This document shows, in pieces, positions 9,303 through 47,866 of a stretch of DNA of 64,000 bases. This stretch comes from an uncultured Prevotellaceae bacterium. GTDB lineage: Bacteria > Bacteroidota > Bacteroidia > Bacteroidales > Bacteroidaceae. Numbering within the stretch: position 1 is the stretch's first letter; each line of letters starts with the position of its first letter. A model generated the notes under the pieces. It was not told the origin of the DNA. It was given only the letters and a program-made list of their open reading frames with translations, and made no database searches. Made by a program: the position numbers and the translations under genes. The stretch lies in contig OMXS01000007.1 in the NCBI GenBank assembly GCA_900315095.1, positions 1 to 64,000 of the forward strand. The letters run 5' to 3'.

Positions 9303-10523
9303 TTAAAAACGTTGATAACATAGATAATATTTGCGAATTTTTTTCGAAAGAAGCCCAACATTGAGTATTTCAGACGATTCTGCTATGTCTTTTGTAGTGC
9401 CGTCTTTAAAGAGTATGCTGATGCGGTCGTCGTTCACATCGTACATGTCTTTCTGTATGGTGTTCACGCTGAAGAGGTAGTTAGTTTCTTCTTTGCTGAT
9501 GCCGAAAGCCTGTGAAAGTTGTTCGCGCAACGTCTCCTCGCGCTCGGCTGTTATCGGTTCGTTGCTCACCTCCACCTTGAAGATGTTGCGGTCGAGCATG
9601 TCTTTAGCGAGCATCGAGAGAATTTTGTCGTTGCTCTGCGCCCATACCTTCATGGCGCTCCAAATGTCGTTGTCGTCGAGTTGTCCGTAGTTGCTTAGCG
9701 CCTCGGGGTCGTTCCTGAACATCTCGCCGTTCACGTCGTTGTATAGGAAATATTTTAAGCATGGCGGTGCGAAAACATCCTTGCCCTCTCTTGCCAGATG
9801 CTTCGCCCTAAGCAGGGTGTTCACCAGCACTTTCTCGTATGCCACCGCTGTCTTGTGCAAGTACACCTGCCAGTACATCAGTCTTCGCGAAGTGAGGTAG
9901 TTCTCTATCGAGTAGATGCCTTTCGACTCCACGACGAGTTGGTCGTCAACCACGTTGAGCATCTTTATTATGCGCGCCGAGCCGATGTTGCCTTCGTTCA
10001 CGCCCGTGAAGAAACAGTCGCGTCGAAGGTAGTCGAGACGGTCCATGTCGAGTTGTGAACTTATAAGCTGGTGCAGGAAATGCTTAGGATATTCGTCCTT
10101 GAATATTTTCAGCGCAAGGTTCAGCGCCCCGTTCATCTCGCGGTTTATCTGCTCCATCATCATCAGCGAGATTTCCTCGTGAGAGATGCCTGTGATGAGG
10201 GTGTTCTCAAGAACGTGTGAAAACGGGCCGTGTCCGATGTCGTGCATCAATATTGCCGCTTCCACCGCCTCTGCCTCGGAATCGAAGATGAAGATACCCT
10301 TCTGCGTGAGGCTCGTTATGGCCTCGCTCATCAGGTGGAACGCTCCAATGGAATGCTGGAAGCGGGTGTGCTGTGCTGCCGGGTAGACGGCGTTGGCAAG
10401 ACCCAGTTGCTTAATCCTCGTAAGTCGTTGCATCAGCGGGTGTTGCACCACGTCGAGCAGCACGCCGTGGGGTATCTTGATGAACCCGAAAACGGGGTCG
10501 TTGATAATCTTTGCGTCAATCAT
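9303..10523 (-). CDS. HD-domain phosphohydrolase (dGTPase-like)
   Basis: 406 residues. The metal-binding motif set is present: RFQHSIGAFHL (His, about 55), LMHDIGHGPFSH (HD pair, about 95) and SSQLDMDRLDYLRRD (late Asp, about 160). This arrangement is typical of SAMHD1/dNTPase-like proteins of about 400 residues. The substrate cannot be read from sequence; a nucleotide triphosphohydrolase is the best guess. It precedes lpxD in the same direction. Confidence 0.8.
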   Translation of the reverse strand: MIDAKIINDPVFGFIKIPHGVLLDVVQHPLMQRLTRIKQLGLANAVYPAAQHTRFQHSIGAFHLMSEAITSLTQKGIFIFDSEAEAVEAAILMHDIGHGPFSHVLENTLITGISHEEISLMMMEQINREMNGALNLALKIFKDEYPKHFLHQLISSQLDMDRLDYLRRDCFFTGVNEGNIGSARIIKMLNVVDDQLVVESKGIYSIENYLTSRRLMYWQVYLHKTAVAYEKVLVNTLLRAKHLAREGKDVFAPPCLKYFLYNDVNGEMFRNDPEALSNYGQLDDNDIWSAMKVWAQSNDKILSMLAKDMLDRNIFKVEVSNEPITAEREETLREQLSQAFGISKEETNYLFSVNTIQKDMYDVNDDRISILFKDGTTKDIAESSEILNVGLLSKKIRKYYLCYQRF

Positions 10524-10551
10524 TCTTCAAACGTAAGAATACACTAGAAAC

Positions 10552-10637
10552 CACAAGTGAGGATGCCAAAAGCCACAAGTGAGGATGTCAAAAAGCCACA
10601 AGTGAGGAGGTCAAAAGCCACAAGTGAGGATGCATGG
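10552..10637. repeat. 22-bp tandem repeat array 1
   Basis: Four contiguous units begin at 10558, 10580, 10603 and 10625 (22, 23 and 22 nt, then a partial). Each starts TGAGGATG or TGAGGAGG, continues with CCAAAAG or TCAAAAG, and ends with the array-specific CCACAAG. It lies between the start of the HD gene and the pyrF stop. Related arrays are at 22029-22186 and 37871-37968. Confidence 0.85.
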
Positions 10638-10655
10638 AGCAGGGTGGTGCGAGAA

Positions 10656-11477
10656 TCATATCTTTGCAAGCTCGTATTTCATCTGCTGCTGCAGCTCCTT
10701 AGCTTTCTGTGCAGCCACTTCAGCAAAGTCTTCGCCTTGAGAGGCGTAAATTATTCCGCGTGATGAGTTTACGAGAAGTCCGCAGTCGTCAGTAAGTCCG
10801 AAGCGGCACACCTCTTCAAGCGAGCCGCCCTGTGCTCCTACACCTGGCACGAGGAGGAAACTGCGCGGTGCTATGCGGCGAACATCCTCGAACATGCGGC
10901 CTTGTGTGGCGCCAACCACGAACATCAGGTTGTCCTCGTCACCCCATTTCTGCGACTTGCGAAGCACTTTCTCAAACAGTTTCTCGCCGTTCTTGTCCTC
11001 TGTGAGCTGGAAGTCATAACTGCCCTTGTTGCTCGTAAGTGCCAGCAGCACCACCCATTTGCCCTCGTATCCGAGGAAAGGCATCACGCTGTCGTCGCCC
11101 ATGTAAGGTGCTACGGTCAACGCGTCAACGTCATATTCCTCGAAGAACGTGCGTGCATACATGGCGCTGGTGTTGCCGATATCTCCGCGCTTGGCGTCGG
11201 CAATAACGAAGTGTTTGGGATAATTCTCTTTGAGGTATTTCACCGTCTTCTCGAATGCTATGATGCCCTTCACTCCGAAGGCTTCATAGAAGGCGAGATT
11301 TGGTTTATATGAGACACAGTAGGGTGCTGTGGCGTCTATTATTGCCTTGTTGAAGGCGAAGATGGGGTCTTCTTCGTTCAGCAGGTGCTGCGGTATCTTC
11401 TTGATGTCTGTGTCGAGTCCTACACACAGAAACGATTGTTTCTCCTTGATTTGTTGTACCAGTTCTTGTCTGTTCAT
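10656..11477 (-). CDS. pyrF: Orotidine 5'-phosphate decarboxylase
   Basis: 273 residues, the longer (type 2) bacterial form. It decarboxylates OMP to UMP at the end of pyrimidine synthesis. The catalytic Asp-Lys-Asp set appears in [17 protein letters not shown] (about 93-110), and the phosphate-binding loop in [15 protein letters not shown] (about 211-225). Its start is 2 nt after the stop of a 72-codon gene, so it is co-transcribed with prfA. Confidence 0.94.
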
Positions 11478-21796: not shown

Positions 21797-21870
21797 GGCT
21801 CCGTAGCTCAACTGAATAGAGCATCTGACTACGGATCAGAAGGTTGTGGGTTTGAATCCCGCCGGAGTCA
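21797..21870 (+). tRNA. tRNA-Arg (ACG)
   Basis: 74 nt fold into a full cloverleaf. The acceptor arm GGCTCCG pairs with CGGAGTC (one G-U), followed by discriminator A. The D-stem is GCTC/GAGC. The anticodon stem TCTGA/TCAGA encloses loop CTACGGA, giving anticodon ACG. The T-arm GTGGG/CCCGC encloses TTTGAAT. CCA is not encoded. Confidence 0.95.
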
Positions 21871-21878
21871 CGCAAGGA

Positions 21879-21970: not shown

Positions 21971-22016
21971 GCCGGAGTCACGAAACGAGGTTGATAATTG
22001 TCAATCTCGTTTTCAT
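21971..22016 (+). other. Second copy of the tRNA-Arg 3' end with its own terminator
   Basis: GCCGGAGTCACG at 21971-21982 repeats the tRNA 3' end and its 2-nt flank (21861-21872) exactly, 110 bp downstream. It is followed at 21983-22012 by a new hairpin (AAACGAGGTTGA with TCAATCTCGTTT). The 100 bp between the copies hold no gene. It could be an attachment-site scar or the remains of a second tRNA gene. Confidence 0.65.
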
Positions 22017-22028
22017 TTTATGTCTTCT

Positions 22029-22186
22029 TGTAATGCGAAAGATGCCCAGTTGCATTGCAAAAGGGCATCTCTTGGAGGGTAAAAGATATACCTTTGAGGA
22101 TACGAAAGGTATACAATTGAGGATTCAAAAGATATACCTTTGGGATTCGAATGGTATACTTCTTGGAATGAAATGTTATCTTTCTA
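22029..22186. repeat. 22-23-bp tandem repeat array 2 (seven units)
   Basis: Contiguous units begin at 22029, 22051, 22073, 22095, 22118, 22141 and 22164. The clearest two start TGAGGATACGAAAGG and TGAGGATTCAAAAGA and end TATACAAT or TATACCTT. Outer units are more diverged but keep the length and the AAAG core. The last unit overlaps the final codons of the esterase gene. It shares its core with arrays 1 and 3. Confidence 0.8.
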
Positions 22187-23282
22187 TCTGCTTAGAACTT
22201 TCTGTGCCATCGATGGCGGTGACTACGAAGATGAGAACCCGCTCTTTTTCAAGACCTTTGAGGTTGACCATCATCTTGTTGTCAGATATCCCCATCGTGA
22301 CAAATTCTGCCACTTTCTTGCCGCTATAACTTACGACTGAGACTTTCACTATTGGCTTTTCGCTCGTTATGGTGGCACGAGTGCCTTTCTTATTCATCTT
22401 CACGTCAACGCCGAATTGCTCAACGGCATCGTTATTGTCGTCAAGAGTGTCGTCTTTAACTTTTATTCCTAAGGCATCGAGAGCGGCATAGGCATAGCGC
22501 TTGCCAATCTTCCGGTAGCCCTCGGTGGAGAAATGCACGTTGTCGCTAAGTGGCGAACAACCCTTGCTGCTAACTACATAACTGTTGTTAATCCATTCTG
22601 GCAATTGTCTGATAGTTGGCAGAGCATGTGCGCATACGCCGTTGTATGTGCTGTCGACGGTTTCTCCTGCTATCAGCGGACATTCATCTGCCTTGAGGTT
22701 CAGTTCGTTAAGCAGGTTGTCATAGAGTTCTTTCACCATTCTCAACCATGTGTCGTTGTAGGCGTCTGTCTCGCCTTGATGTAGCAGGATGCCTTTAATA
22801 ACGCCGTCGTTTTGTGCTTGCTTTGCCAGCGTGATGAGCCTTTTCAACGGCTCTCCGCCGTAACAGTTCACTTCGTTTCTTTGCCAGTCGGGCAGGTTGC
22901 CGGCTGTCCATTTGGCGCAAGAGTCAGGATGGAAGAGGCGTATCGAACATCCGTCAACAGCCACGATGATAGTTCCCACGCGCACATCCTTCGGCAAATG
23001 CTGAACCATAGTGCGTCCAAAGTAGTCGGTAGGACCAATCTTGGTGTATTGACGCGCAAGTGGCGGTATGGCCTTGCGCCATTTCCCTGTCTCGTGGATG
23101 TCGCAATCGGAGGCCGTCATATTCAGAAAACGGTCGTCGACTATGGAGTCTTGATGCTCTATCGGACCCTGTCCCACCATGTTTGATTGTCCAATAGCAA
23201 GGTAGATGTAGAAGTTTGGGTCTTGTGCGTGGCACACATTGACTGCCAGCAACATAAGTAAAGTAAGTGCAAAATGTTTCAT
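22176..23282 (-). CDS. Secreted carbohydrate acetylesterase (CE6 / sialate O-acetylesterase-like)
   Basis: 368 residues with a signal peptide (MKHFALTLLMLLAVNVCHAQ). The SGNH/CE6 fold is shown by the nucleophile block LAIGQSNMVGQGP (about 29-41), LLHQGETDAY (about 166-175) and the catalytic Asp-His pair in SDNVHFSTEGYRKIGKRYA (about 247-265). CE6 enzymes remove acetyl groups from xylan and related glycans. The last 80 residues (VSVVSYSGKKVAEF) resemble a small C-terminal beta domain. No SusCD pair or other polysaccharide gene flanks it. Confidence 0.82.
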   Translation of the reverse strand: MKHFALTLLMLLAVNVCHAQDPNFYIYLAIGQSNMVGQGPIEHQDSIVDDRFLNMTASDCDIHETGKWRKAIPPLARQYTKIGPTDYFGRTMVQHLPKDVRVGTIIVAVDGCSIRLFHPDSCAKWTAGNLPDWQRNEVNCYGGEPLKRLITLAKQAQNDGVIKGILLHQGETDAYNDTWLRMVKELYDNLLNELNLKADECPLIAGETVDSTYNGVCAHALPTIRQLPEWINNSYVVSSKGCSPLSDNVHFSTEGYRKIGKRYAYAALDALGIKVKDDTLDDNNDAVEQFGVDVKMNKKGTRATITSEKPIVKVSVVSYSGKKVAEFVTMGISDNKMMVNLKGLEKERVLIFVVTAIDGTESSKQIER

Positions 23283-36745: not shown

Positions 36746-37084
36746 ATGGATTACAAGAAGTCAAAAGCACCAGTAAACACAGTAACTCGTAACATCATGG
36801 ACCTTTGCGAGGACACAGGCAACATCTATGAGAGCGTTGCAATTATCGCAAAGAGGGCCAACCAGATTTCAGCAGAGATAAAGCAGGACCTCAGCAAGAA
36901 ACTGGCTGAGTTCGCTTCATATAACGATAGTCTTGAGGAGGTATTTGAGAACCGCGAGCAGATAGAAATCTCTCGCTACTACGAGAAGCTTCCTAAGGCA
37001 ACATTGTTGGCAACAGAGGAGTTTATAGAAGGTAACGTCGTTTGGCGCGACCTGAACAAAGAGGCTCAAAAAGAGGAAGAGTAA
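36746..37084 (+). CDS. rpoZ: RNA polymerase omega subunit, Bacteroidetes type
   Basis: 112 residues. It is related to Rpb6/omega: NIMDLCEDTGNIYESVAIIA (about 12-31) and the helix RANQISAEIKQDLSKKLAEF match the Bacteroidetes form, which is longer than the enterobacterial one. It ends with an acidic tail (KEAQKEEE). Its stop overlaps the next start by one base (TAATG). Confidence 0.85.
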   Translation: MDYKKSKAPVNTVTRNIMDLCEDTGNIYESVAIIAKRANQISAEIKQDLSKKLAEFASYNDSLEEVFENREQIEISRYYEKLPKATLLATEEFIEGNVVWRDLNKEAQKEEE

Positions 37085-37542
37085 TGCTGCAGCGCAAACA
37101 GACAGTATTCTTGCTTCTGGCACTCATACTCACAGTAGTCTGCCTTTGCTTGCCAGTAGGCTTGTTCACTCCGGAGAACATGCAGCCAACATCGCTGATG
37201 GTAAACCTCTGGGTAAACATGCCCGATGGCGCGCACGACTATTCGGTATGGCCTTTGTTCGCCGTGCTGTTGCTGTCGTGCCCAATAACAATAGCGGCTA
37301 TCTTTGCCTATCGCAACCGCATTTTCCAGAGTCGCCTATGCCTCTTGTCAATGCTCTTGATGCTTGCATGGTATGCTGCATACGCCGTGTTCGGCTATGC
37401 CGTGCCGCGTGTAGAGAACGCTGCTTTCACACCTTCTTTAGCAGCAGCATTCCCGTTGGTTAATGTCATCCTTCTCCTTATGGCTCGTCACGGCATACTT
37501 GCAGACGAGGCTTTGGTGAGGGCAGCAGACAGAATCAGGTAA
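37084..37542 (+). CDS. DUF4293-type four-helix membrane protein
   Basis: 152 residues from ATG 37084, overlapping the rpoZ stop. Four hydrophobic segments (VFLLLALILTVVCLCLPVG; PLFAVLLLSCPITIAAIFAY; LCLLSMLLMLAWYAAYAVF; LAAAFPLVNVILLLMARHG) with a periplasmic loop after helix 1. In Bacteroidetes this family often follows rpoZ. The function is unknown. It is the last gene before a strong terminator. Confidence 0.75.
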   Translation: MLQRKQTVFLLLALILTVVCLCLPVGLFTPENMQPTSLMVNLWVNMPDGAHDYSVWPLFAVLLLSCPITIAAIFAYRNRIFQSRLCLLSMLLMLAWYAAYAVFGYAVPRVENAAFTPSLAAAFPLVNVILLLMARHGILADEALVRAADRIR

Positions 37543-37597: not shown

Positions 37598-37692
37598 TTT
37601 AGGCAATTATTACTTTTAGACCCTACATGGATGGTTTTCCGTAAAATGACCTGATGACGCAAGCCTTTCCCTTTAGCCATTGACCGTTGGTT

Positions 37693-37819
37693 CCCCGCCC
37701 CTGTAGGGGAGGGGTAGGGGTGGGGTCAGTAATTAAAGGAAAGAGATAAGGGAGATAAGTTGAGTTGTGTGTGGAAAGGCACTGACCCCACCCTCAACCC
37801 CTCCCCTACAGGGGCGGGG
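37693..37819. repeat. Inverted pair of GC-rich REP-like modules
   Basis: The left arm (37693-37730) and right arm (37781-37819) are near-perfect inverses of about 38 bp. Each contains its own small palindrome (CCCCTGTAGGGG or CCCCTACAGGGG) and ends at GGGTCAGT or ACTGACCC. The loop is 50 bp. The same palindrome type recurs at 182-216, 548-575 and 613-650. Confidence 0.85.
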
Positions 37820-37870
37820 AGTCATTAGCATGGGGCCTAGTAGTACATAATTACCTTTGTTTATATACAT

Positions 37871-37968
37871 TTGACGGTCTCACTAAGCACATCTGACATC
37901 CTCAGGAGGCACATCTGAGCGTCTCACTAAGCACATCTGACACCCTCGCTTGTGCCTTTTGAGAAGCC
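37871..37968. repeat. 22-bp tandem repeat array 3
   Basis: Three exact 22-nt units lie at 37883-37904, 37905-37926 and 37927-37948, each ending TGACATCCTCA or a close variant, with partial units at both ends. Read on the minus strand they begin TGAGGATGTCA like array 1. The final partial unit (CTTGTGCCTTTTGA, 37949-37962) carries the array-1 variable half. Confidence 0.85.
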
Positions 37969-38017
37969 CAAAAACCATCAATCGACGATTCATTATTTGT
38001 TCTGAAGACATAAAAAG

Positions 38018-38050
38018 AAAGGACATCGAGAAAACCCGATGTCCTTTTAT
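38018..38050 (-). terminator. Terminator for the Ala-rich lipoprotein gene
   Basis: AAAGGACATCG (38018-38028) pairs with CGATGTCCTTT (38037-38047). On the minus strand TTTCTTTTTATG follows. It is 53 nt beyond the stop codon. Confidence 0.7.
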
Positions 38051-38102: not shown

Positions 38103-38678
38103 TTAGAGTCCCAGACCTTTAATTGCCTTGTCGGCAGCCTTGTCAGCAGCCTCGTTGATCTTGTCAGCAGCCTTCTGCTTAGCAGCGTCAACAGCCTCGT
38201 TTGTCTTCTGCTTAGCAGCGTCTACAGCAGCGTCAGCCTTATCCTTTGCAGCATCAGCAGCAGCCTTTGCACCTTCTACAGCCTGCTCGCCAGCGCCGAG
38301 AGCCTCAACAGGAATAGCCTTAACACCCTCAACAAGCTTGTTCAAAGTCTCATTCTCACCTACAACGCTCTTTACAGTCTCAGCATTGGTTGTGAGCCAA
38401 TCCTGTACCTGCTTTACGAGAGCCTTAGCCTCTTCGAGCTTGCCCTCTTTCTTCAGAGCCTCAATCTTCTCGTTGATAGTTGCAAGAGCAGCCTGCATAC
38501 CGTTAGCGTCCTTAGCGTCGAGTTTCGACTGGAGGTCCTTTGTTACGTCTTCAGCAACATTCTCAACAGCTGGAGTAGCAGTAGAGTCAGCAGCGTTAGC
38601 GTCACCCTTAGCAGAGTTTGTACAACTTGCAAATGAAATTGCAACGGCAGCAACTGCCATAAACAATACTTTCTTCAT
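38103..38678 (-). CDS. Ala/Lys-rich lipoprotein with apolipoprotein-like repeats
   Basis: 191 residues from ATG 38678, giving a lipoprotein signal (VLFMAVAAVAISFASC). The C-terminal third is a run of 11-residue-like helical repeats (AAADAAKDKADAAVDAAKQK; TNEAVDAAKQKAADKINEAA), resembling YtxH/LEA-like amphipathic helices. The middle is a helical stretch with no known motif. It probably lies on the periplasmic side of a membrane and may have a stabilising role (inference). Its own promoter and terminator make it monocistronic. Confidence 0.75.
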   Translation of the reverse strand: MKKVLFMAVAAVAISFASCTNSAKGDANAADSTATPAVENVAEDVTKDLQSKLDAKDANGMQAALATINEKIEALKKEGKLEEAKALVKQVQDWLTTNAETVKSVVGENETLNKLVEGVKAIPVEALGAGEQAVEGAKAAADAAKDKADAAVDAAKQKTNEAVDAAKQKAADKINEAADKAADKAIKGLGL

Positions 38679-38720
38679 AATCATGTTTGTTTTAAAGGTT
38701 GAATAAATACTAAATCGGGT

Positions 38721-46499: not shown

Positions 46500-47747
46500 T
46501 TATTCGTCGCGCATGGCATCGACGGGTTTTATGCTCATGGCCCTGAGTGCAGGCGCAAGCCCCGCGAGAACGCCGAGAACGCTAAGCAATGCTAGGGCTG
46601 CAATGGCTGCCCAGAAACTTATCTGAAAATGTGCTGTGAGCACACCGTCGGTGGTGGAGCCCAGTTCAAGCATCTCGAGAACGAACACCGTGAAGAGTAT
46701 GCCCATCATCCCAGCCACTATTGTAAGCACCACACTCTCGGCAATTATCTGCGAGAGTATGTTCGACGGTGTTGCCCCTATGGCTCGCCGTATTCCTATC
46801 TCCGTTGTTCGCTCCTTCACCGTCACCATCATGATGTTGCTCACGCCTATGGCACCAGCGAGAAGTGTGCCAATGCCCACGAGCATGATGAGGAAGTTCA
46901 CTCCCGAGAACAGGTTGTCGAGCATTCCGAACATCACCTCAGAGTTGAACACGCTGATGGCTTTCTCGTCGGTGGGGTCTATATGGTGTGCGTTTGCTAT
47001 GACGCGCCGCATCTTTGATGTTATGTCGCTCATTGCCACCCCTCGCTTTGCTGTCACGGCTATGAGATGCACCGTATCGCCCCTGTTGTATGCTTGTTGC
47101 ATTATAGAGAGCGGCACAGATATTGACTCGTCGGCGCTGCCGTTGATGTTTATGTTACCGCTAGAGTAGTCCACTCCCACCACGTTATAGTATATCTTGT
47201 CTATGCACAACCGCTTGCCGCAGGGGTCGCCTCCTCCAGGGAACAGTTCCTTGTATATTTTCTTCCCGATGACACACACCTTACGGTTCTGCTGGATGTC
47301 CATGTCGTTGAGATACCTGCCGTAGTGTATTCTCGGTTGCTCCACGTTCTGGTATCCCGCAAGCAGTCCTTTTACTGTGGCGGTGCTCTTTTTGTCGCCT
47401 ACGGTGACCACGCGTCCCCATTCAGATATCATTGGCTGCACCTCGTCCAGTTCTGGCACCTGTTCCTTCAACCGCACCACGTCGTTGTAGTTCATGCTCC
47501 ACCAACGTCCCTTGCGCAGTCCGTTGTATGGCTTTGTTGTCGATTGCGCCCATATCATTGCGGAGTTGGTTGCAAAACCGTCGAAATTTCGTGCCAGAAG
47601 TTCGCGCAGTCCATTGCCGCCTCCGAGAAGTGCCACGAGCATGAAGATGCCCCAGAACACTCCGAAGCCAGTAAGCAGCGAGCGGCTCTTGTTTCTCGTT
47701 ATCGTGTCGAGAATCTCGCGATGGCGGTCAATGTCAAATAACAGCAT
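46500..47747 (-). CDS. MacB-type ABC transporter permease 2
   Basis: 415 residues. The N-terminal helix (SRSLLTGFGVFWGIFMLVAL) is followed by a large periplasmic MacB_PCD domain and the FtsX triple-helix end (MLVGIGTLLAGAIGVSNIMM, VKERTTEIGIRRAIGATPSN, ALRAMSIKPVDAMRDE). It has no ATPase domain. It is paired with a second permease upstream, suggesting a heterodimeric FtsX-like exporter driven by the ATPase at 49195-49872. The leader just before its start codon is a 119-nt heptamer array. Confidence 0.9.
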   Translation of the reverse strand: MLLFDIDRHREILDTITRNKSRSLLTGFGVFWGIFMLVALLGGGNGLRELLARNFDGFATNSAMIWAQSTTKPYNGLRKGRWWSMNYNDVVRLKEQVPELDEVQPMISEWGRVVTVGDKKSTATVKGLLAGYQNVEQPRIHYGRYLNDMDIQQNRKVCVIGKKIYKELFPGGGDPCGKRLCIDKIYYNVVGVDYSSGNININGSADESISVPLSIMQQAYNRGDTVHLIAVTAKRGVAMSDITSKMRRVIANAHHIDPTDEKAISVFNSEVMFGMLDNLFSGVNFLIMLVGIGTLLAGAIGVSNIMMVTVKERTTEIGIRRAIGATPSNILSQIIAESVVLTIVAGMMGILFTVFVLEMLELGSTTDGVLTAHFQISFWAAIAALALLSVLGVLAGLAPALRAMSIKPVDAMRDE

Positions 47748-47866
47748 AACTCCTAACTTCTAACTTCTAACTCCTAACTTCTAACTCCTAACTCCTAACT
47801 CCTAACTCCTAACTTCTAACTTCTAACTCCTAACTTCTAACTTCTAACTCCTAACTCCTAACTTCC
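47748..47866. repeat. Seventeen-copy heptamer array between the two permease genes
   Basis: Seventeen 7-nt units in perfect register: nine AACTCCT, seven AACTTCT and one AACTTCC. On the transcribed (minus) strand this reads AGGAGTT or AGAAGTT, so each AACTCCT unit offers a Shine-Dalgarno-like AGGAG and the last one sits a few nt before the permease-2 ATG. It completely fills the gap between the upstream stop (47868) and the start codon (47747). Confidence 0.95.

What the first reader, a model, noticed from the sequence alone, without database searches (positions are those of the whole stretch)
22029..22186. A family of 22-23-bp tandem arrays with a shared core and an array-specific half
Seven contiguous 22-23-nt units lie here. 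The core TGAGGAT followed by AAAAG also heads every unit of arrays 10552-10637 and 37871-37968 (minus strand), while the remaining 7-10 nt are uniform inside an array but differ between arrays. The final partial unit of array 3 carries the array-1 half, which ties the arrays together. Units are contiguous without spacers, so this is not CRISPR. A 22-bp period puts the A-tract on the same helix face each turn pair and suggests a protein-binding or DNA-bending role, or a concerted-evolution repeat of unknown origin.
Basis: seen in the sequence. Interest (0 to 1): 0.78.

Follow-up and report, generated by a model that had tools for sequence, protein, structure and literature searches.

The report
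Genome-wide 22-base intergenic repeat arrays
The three arrays belong to a large set of short repeat arrays between genes in Prevotella genomes, where unit lengths pile up at exactly 22 bases even in arrays of unrelated sequence, which hints at an unknown process that measures 22 bases.

Summary
The arrays are real and part of something larger. A profile built only from arrays outside the window scores all three. The same genome has 60 further places at E<=0.01. Units alternate an 11-nt module A (TGA-N5-TCA) with a variable 11-12-nt module B. Module orientation is mixed within many arrays. The claim that TGAGGAT plus AAAAG heads every unit is wrong; the prediction of lineage-specific halves and changing copy number holds.

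The surprise is the period. In 1.26 Mb of this genome and its relative Prevotella sp. UBA4330, intergenic tandem arrays peak at exactly 22 bp (21: 14, 22: 71, 23: 6), against one coding array of period 22. The peak spans several sequence families. In stretches of 20 kb or less from 20 family genomes, 14 of 41 intergenic arrays have period 22. Some orthologous spaces hold 22-bp arrays of different sequence in the two species.

Best reading: hairpin-prone, BIME-like minisatellites remodelled by template switching, with an unexplained 22-bp ruler. BrickBuilt and tagged-REP membership fail; it is not CRISPR. No function was shown.

The parts
10546..10645 (+). array 1: about four units TGAGG + NNG[T/C]CA + AAAGCCACAAG (22, 23, 22 bp), between two same-strand genes (9303-10523 and 10656-11477, both minus)
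   Evidence: 61 of 65 aligned columns match the array at G000:C26:274223; no array seen at the orthologous site in three relatives
22029..22186 (+). array 2 (the finding): about seven degenerate 22-23-bp units, best part 22082-22159; convergent intergenic between tRNA-Arg (21797-21871 +) and gene 22176-23255 (-); its end overlaps the 3' end of that gene call
   Evidence: fold z -4.7/-6.0 on the two strands
37867..37968 (-). array 3: about four to five units of period 22, convergent intergenic between 37084-37542 (+) and 38103-38684 (-)
   Evidence: fold z -2.3/-2.0; orthologous space in RGIG7809 has no array
21982..22013 (+). terminator-like hairpin just before array 2, so array 2 lies beyond it
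   Evidence: pattern match only: 1 found in the region, 0.6 on average in shuffles
38017..38048 (.). terminator-like hairpin with T tails on both strands, between array 3 and the minus-strand gene
   Evidence: pattern match only: 4 found in the region, 0.5 on average in shuffles

Best explanation
These are dispersed, hairpin-prone 22-bp minisatellite arrays, BIME-like in layout. Each unit is two 11-bp half-units with statistical dyad symmetry. Arrays gain and lose units, are homogenised within a site, share units with distant sites, and sit in intergenic DNA, mostly away from gene starts. Shown: dispersion, intergenic confinement, a sharp 22-bp period peak across several sequence families, mixed module orientation, excess folding, unit swap and copy-number change at orthologous sites. 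Inferred: polymerase template switching at short inverted repeats inverts modules in place and evens out arms; slippage or recombination changes copy number; a ruler of two helical turns (a DNA-handling enzyme, or phasing for a bound protein) fixes the unit at 22 bp. The ruler is not identified.
For: Intergenic period counts 21:14, 22:71, 23:6 against 1 coding array of period 22 (parts); several families at period 22; 14 of 41 intergenic and 0 of 10 coding arrays in a 20-genome sample. A orientation mixed in 26 and B orientation in 17 of 49 parsed arrays. Fold z, mean of both strands, -3.8 against -0.9 for other intergenic DNA, n=77 each, p=1.7e-9. Orthologous sites. Between same-strand genes 37 of 43 arrays lie nearer the upstream stop, against 48 of 100 arrays of period below 15 (Fisher p=1.5e-5). 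Template switching between short inverted repeats is described as homogenising arms and inverting spacers (PMC8604942, start of abstract seen in the listing).
Against: B-arm complementarity is weak: 3-nt arms in 18.3% of 115 unique modules against 10.1% expected (4 of 2000 shuffles), but 4-nt arms not (254 of 2000) and all 177 modules not clearly (150 of 2000). Consensus reflection symmetry reaches p<0.05 in only 26% of 77 arrays (9% of 94 other-period arrays). Array 1 does not fold (z +1.8/-0.3). The 3'-end bias is largely shared by other long-period arrays (37 of 54 nearer the stop, p=0.056), and the convergent excess over intergenic bases (26 of 77, p=3.6e-5) is not above that of other-period arrays (69 of 263, p=0.20). 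Hairpin slippage alone would not explain the same 22 bp in families with different arms. No mutation was observed directly; all is inferred from draft genomes.
Confidence: 0.5

Rival explanations
1. Protein-binding arrays: a dimeric DNA-binding protein recognises dyads spaced one helical turn apart and binds cooperatively along one face, as Rep proteins do on plasmid iterons; selection keeps the 22-bp spacing while the recognised word drifts.
For: Exact 22-bp (two-turn) spacing; TGA-N5-TCA framework kept, by eye, at orthologous arrays while B modules change; terminator-like hairpins stand between stop and array on 39 of 95 stop-facing sides against 6 in shuffled sequence, which favours DNA over RNA level there. 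22-bp repeats on plasmids appear in the listing (context not read); iteron behaviour is recalled.
Against: Several unrelated unit sequences coexist in one genome, which one sequence-specific protein would not read; no candidate protein was sought or tested. The kept framework was seen mostly at loci fetched because they match the profile.
Confidence: 0.2
2. RNA elements: arrays are transcribed in 3' UTRs, and chains of small hairpins stabilise or terminate messages.
For: Position nearer stops than starts and folding excess; 23 of 95 stop-facing sides have a terminator-like pattern at the array or in the 40 bases before it (no shuffled control for this count).
Against: Folding is similar on the two strands in arrays 2 and 3; arrays 2 and 3 lie beyond terminator-like hairpins, as do many others (39 of 95); array 1 does not fold.
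Confidence: 0.15
3. Non-autonomous mobile element (MITE) carrying a minisatellite, like BrickBuilt of Porphyromonas gingivalis.
For: L148 and L155 share several hundred bp around the array, with further copies in UBA4330; some arrays share a tail by eye; array 1 is not seen at the orthologous site in three relatives.
Against: Only 7 of 60 parsed arrays share 100 bp or more of flank with another, and three of these (array 3, L166, L184) probably through a neighbouring palindromic repeat; no IS5-type end excess near arrays (5 of 60 against 4 shuffled); no clean insertion junction at array 1 by eye.
Confidence: 0.1
4. Ordinary neutral replication slippage of resident sequence with no special ruler.
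For: Copy number varies and arrays decay at the edges.
Against: Slippage gives no reason for 71 arrays of 22 against 14 of 21 and 6 of 23, for the same period in unrelated families, or for different families in the same space.
Confidence: 0.05

Closest known systems
BrickBuilt, 23-nt minisatellite in a MITE of Porphyromonas gingivalis (PMC4596501; abstract, sections 5, 7 part 1 and 8, and found passages read)
   Same: Same phylum; 23-nt units without spacers; intergenic; many dispersed copies with varying unit number; one half of the unit less conserved; predicted stem-loops; terminators predicted nearby in about half the cases.
   Different: Units not similar beyond chance in 7 of 8 consensus units tested (shuffled fraction 0.25-0.99; 0.027 for array 1); no IS5-like ends; several unrelated families instead of one; mixed module orientation not described in the parts read.
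REP / BIME elements with RAYT transposases (PMC3733652, found passages; PMC2817692 and PMC3116915, start of abstract in the listing)
   Same: Short palindromic repeats, alternating orientation in BIMEs, intergenic, high copy.
   Different: GTAG or CGTC is present in few units (7 and 16 of 249, either strand); the genome's one Y1 transposase gene found (C26:61492) has a different, GTAG-ended inverted pair upstream, not a 22-bp array (by eye); arrays here are strictly periodic.
Plasmid replication iterons of 22 bp (listing; details recalled)
   Same: Two-turn tandem spacing.
   Different: Here chromosomal, dispersed at tens of loci and of many sequences.
22- and 23-nt tandem repeats noted in P. 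gingivalis W83 (mentioned in PMC4596501 section 7)
   Same: Same period in a related bacterium.
   Different: Mentioned there without places; relation to these arrays unknown.

Membership tests
BrickBuilt | 23-nt unit AGAYCATARTATCCTCTCRTRTG | tested here: not met
   7 of 8 consensus units at chance; array 1 reached by 0.027 of shuffles
BrickBuilt | IS5-like terminal inverted repeat GAGACCTTTGCA near the array | tested here: not met
   5 of 60 arrays within 350 bp at up to 2 mismatches, 4 in shuffled flanks
BrickBuilt | common leader and tail around the repeats | tested here: inconclusive
   7 of 60 arrays share 100 bp or more of flank with another; short shared tails seen by eye
REP/BIME (RAYT-mobilised) | GTAG or CGTC tag on each palindrome | tested here: not met
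   GTAG in 7 and CGTC in 16 of 249 TGAGG-family units, either strand; other families not counted (one, CAGTCCGAACGTCACGTACTG, contains CGTC)
REP/BIME (RAYT-mobilised) | RAYT gene flanked by the same repeat | tested here: not met
   one PF01797 gene; the inverted pair upstream of it is a different sequence
REP/BIME (layout only) | alternating orientation of short palindromes in intergenic DNA | tested here: met
   (26 of 49 arrays with mixed A orientation)
CRISPR | unique spacers between repeats | tested here: not met
   units contiguous
Intrinsic terminator | hairpin followed by a T run at the array | tested here: inconclusive
   23 of 95 stop-facing sides at or just before the array, 39 of 95 between stop and array; none listed inside arrays 2 or 3
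Known Rfam RNA | match at gathering score | tested here: not met
   only tRNA-Arg in the window

The most novel reading that the evidence does not exclude
Prevotella and related bacteria have an enzymatic activity, or a structural DNA protein, that builds or maintains tandem arrays with a fixed 22-bp unit whatever the sequence. Arrays sit in intergenic DNA away from gene starts, and their sequence family can be replaced at the same site while the 22-bp measure stays. This would be a sequence-independent ruler for making repeats in bacteria.
Probability: 0.3. Interest if true: 0.9.

Novelty: new variant of a known kind. Interest (0 to 1): 0.7.

Why it matters
If the 22-bp measure is real and sequence-independent, it points to an unrecognised process that writes short repeats into bacterial chromosomes, comparable in kind to RAYT-driven REP spread but with a ruler instead of a tag. 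It would also give a fast-evolving strain marker in abundant gut and rumen bacteria, and a natural system for studying template switching at short inverted repeats.

Tried and rejected
RAYT link: one Y1 transposase gene was found; the inverted pair beside it is a different sequence, so it was set aside as the maker of these arrays on position alone. BrickBuilt kinship: rejected by sequence and ends. Strict B-module hairpins: weak, so I claim no conserved hairpin. Terminator role for arrays 2 and 3: not supported. A conservation test of TGA/TCA positions against flanks was considered and left out, because most ortholog loci had been fetched through matches to the same motif. Flank orthology: of 60 parsed arrays, 10 had both flanks in the UBA4330 blocks held; 8 were aligned and 2 (L155, L159) were too long and were dropped. 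Whole-genome match list: 150 of 1391 first-look candidates were scored, so counts are lower bounds; five weak places (E 0.12-0.47) were not printed. The parser scores loosely and a few of its 60 arrays (for example L201 at 1227, the far part of L202) look spurious; they stayed in the counts. Arrays straddling gene ends were dropped (12 of 180; 8 of 280). Gene calls for context come from my own simple ORF scorer, not a standard tool. Literature: ten searches; no paper in the listings shown describes a sequence-independent 22-bp peak; two searches listed only 15 of 57 and 10 of 212, and most subscription journals are not held. Structure prediction and fold searches were not used, as no protein is part of the finding.

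Full report
What is there. TRF reports period-22/23 arrays at 10551-10632, 22082-22159 and 37867-37942; raw sequence was read. One hundred dinucleotide-preserving shuffles of the window gave 96 TRF rows, 5 of period 20-24, none with a score of 89 or more (maximum 73), against real scores of 141, 100 and 89. To test relatedness without circularity, I built a sequence-only profile from 21 segments of other arrays, none from the window. It matched all three: E 9.5e-9 (array 1), 4.2e-6 (array 3), 0.0089 (array 2). Array 2, the one in the finding, is the weakest and is not listed at E<=1 genome-wide. The stated core is not in every unit: TGAGGAT heads 3 of 4 units in array 1, 2 of 7 in array 2 and 1 of 4 in array 3 (by eye).

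Genome-wide. The genome (3.24 Mb, 58 contigs) has 13 copies of TGAGGATGTCAAAAG within one mismatch against 0 of the backward control. A loose GAGG three-unit pattern hits 40 times against 16 in its control, a strict one 24 times against 0. The profile gives 129 matches at E<=1 (150 of 1391 candidates were scored, so this is a lower bound). I printed 70 of them, 69 places outside the window's three, of which 60 places have E<=0.01. The strict pattern was found in 3 of 400 family genomes, the own genome being one, and in 0 of 33 other same-genus genomes. Many come from Prevotella or Prevotellaceae metagenome genomes, above all Prevotella sp. UBA4330, whose longer matches to the window are 81-89% identical. 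Of 12 genomes chosen from that scan, 10 had profile matches at E<=0.01 (68 in UBA4330).

Anatomy. Units split into A, 11 nt, TGA-N5-TCA, and B, 11 or 12 nt, variable. B-12 modules carry TATA-like centres (GATGTATACAAG), B-11 modules GC-richer ones (GGAAGCACTCC). Both modules occur in both orientations inside arrays: A orientation was mixed in 26 of 49 arrays with at least three oriented A modules, B in 17 of 49 (A judged from G against C in the loop, edge and a few spurious modules included). B arms are self-complementary only slightly more than expected. Across families, consensus units show more reflection symmetry than shuffled ones on average (0.61 against 0.51; 26% of 77 at p<0.05, against 9% of 94 arrays of other periods from 15 to 60 and 5% of 44 coding arrays).

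The period. In 464 kb of the own genome (contig C26, four stretches of C37, the window), TRF gave 131 intergenic and 37 coding arrays (12 of 180 straddling ones dropped); periods 22-23 made 19 and 0. In 793 kb of UBA4330 it gave 205 intergenic and 67 coding (8 of 280 dropped); period 22 made 53 and 1. Together, intergenic arrays of period 21, 22 and 23 number 14, 71 and 6, and coding arrays 5, 1 and 0. C26 and C37 were chosen for size and earlier hits, not at random. Clustering the 77 intergenic 22/23 consensus units at a shuffled-score threshold gave 17 groups. The largest are AGTAAAATAGCCTATTTTACTC (17 arrays, all UBA4330), AACAAAGTTATTAACTTTGTTC (12), the TGAGG family (10 plus smaller groups) and CAGTACGTGACGTTCGGACTGC (6, all UBA4330); some groups are probably related to each other. 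A sample of 20 stretches from 20 genomes of the family (348 kb; three stretches shorter than 4 kb and without gene calls) gave 41 intergenic and 10 coding arrays; 14 and 0 have period 22, in 10 of the 20 genomes. The 14 units are not all unrelated: 7 of 91 pairs exceed the shuffled threshold. Outside the family the sample is small and sits beside conserved genes: 0 of 30 arrays in 209 kb across the phylum and 1 of 12 in 104 kb across the order. One E. coli stretch of 50 kb had a single array, period 21.

Place and folding. Of the 77 arrays, 43 lie between same-strand genes, 26 in convergent and 8 in divergent spaces; convergent spaces make up 15% of intergenic bases (p=3.6e-5), but arrays of other periods show a similar excess (69 of 263; difference p=0.20). 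Between same-strand genes, 37 of 43 are nearer the upstream stop, against 37 of 54 for other periods of 15-60 (p=0.056) and 48 of 100 for periods below 15 (p=1.5e-5). So the place is only partly special to 22 bp. Mean fold z over both strands is -3.8 against -0.9 for length-matched intergenic controls (n=77 each, p=1.7e-9). Array 1 does not fold; arrays 2 and 3 do. Terminator-like hairpins stand between stop codon and array on 39 of 95 stop-facing sides (6 in shuffled sequence) and at the array or in the 40 bases before it on 23 of 95. Arrays 2 and 3 lie beyond such hairpins (for array 2 the count of one is near the 0.6 expected by chance). That makes an RNA role less likely for them.

Evolution. 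At array 1, three relatives show no array in the same space, while a nearly identical array (61 of 65 aligned columns) sits at C26:274223, so units are shared between distant sites. At array 3, RGIG7809 has a short space without an array; in UBA4330 the region is rearranged and both ends carry the unrelated CAGTACGTGACG family. At array 2 the two flanks lie on different contigs in UBA4330 and in RGIG7809 with other sequence beside them (in UBA4330 the left flank is at a contig end), so the site cannot be compared. Among 8 aligned own arrays with flanks in the UBA4330 blocks, 2 are the same array, 2 spaces have a 22-bp array with another unit, 2 have an unrelated 22-bp family, 1 lacks the TGAGG array but has the AACAAAG family beside it, and array 1 is absent. 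Other shared sites, found through profile matches in both genomes and so biased, show swapped B modules and, at one, about 3 against 7 units (by eye). Among 75 orthologous intergenic spaces, 4 have 22/23-bp arrays in both genomes, 5 in one and 66 in neither (Fisher p=4e-4; length-binned permutation p about 0.004); in 2 of the 4 the two units fall in one cluster, in 2 they do not. Numbers are small.

Reading. Template switching between short inverted repeats is known to even out arms and invert spacers (PMC8604942, listing abstract); that fits mixed module orientation and dyads. It does not fix the unit at 22 bp. A sharp 22 across families of different arm lengths asks for a ruler: two turns of DNA as seen by a bound protein, or an enzyme. 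I cannot tell which. Layout is REP/BIME-like and closest in size to BrickBuilt, but defining features of both were tested and not met.

Noticed in passing
window 37691-37830: A separate palindromic repeat pair (CCCCGCCCCTGTAGGGGAGGGG ... CCCCTCCCCTACAGGGGCGGGG) beside array 3, with dozens of matches in UBA4330, REPIN-like.
   Followed up: partly
G000:C26:61492-61794 (L217): Y1 transposase gene (PF01797, one match, 180-aa frame) with an inverted pair GGGCGCACACGGTGGTACGCCCCTAC / GTAGGGGCGTACCACCGTGTGCGCCCG just upstream: looks like a REP/RAYT pair in a Prevotella.
   Followed up: partly
window 47747-47865: Heptamer array TAACTCC, about 17 copies; arrays of period 7 and 14 are common in intergenic DNA.
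   Followed up: no
UBA4330 blocks (L295-L334): The AGTAAAATAGCCTATTTTACTC family has 17 arrays in 793 kb of UBA4330 and none among the arrays of 464 kb of the own genome: a recent bloom or loss.
   Followed up: partly
L048, L049, L050, L056 and other Gordonia araii loci: Gordonia araii (Actinomycetes) holds many 22-bp arrays of TGAGGTGCCCACTCGGCGNGG, again with short inverted repeats by eye; found by a 22-23-bp pattern, so the period is not independent evidence.
   Followed up: no
L148, L155, L159, L166, L170, L172, L190, L192: Several TGAGG arrays end in variants of a common tail, GAGTGATTAGnnnCTAATCACT; others end in copies of the AACAAAGTTATTAACTTTGTT family, so families are often joined (by eye).
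   Followed up: no
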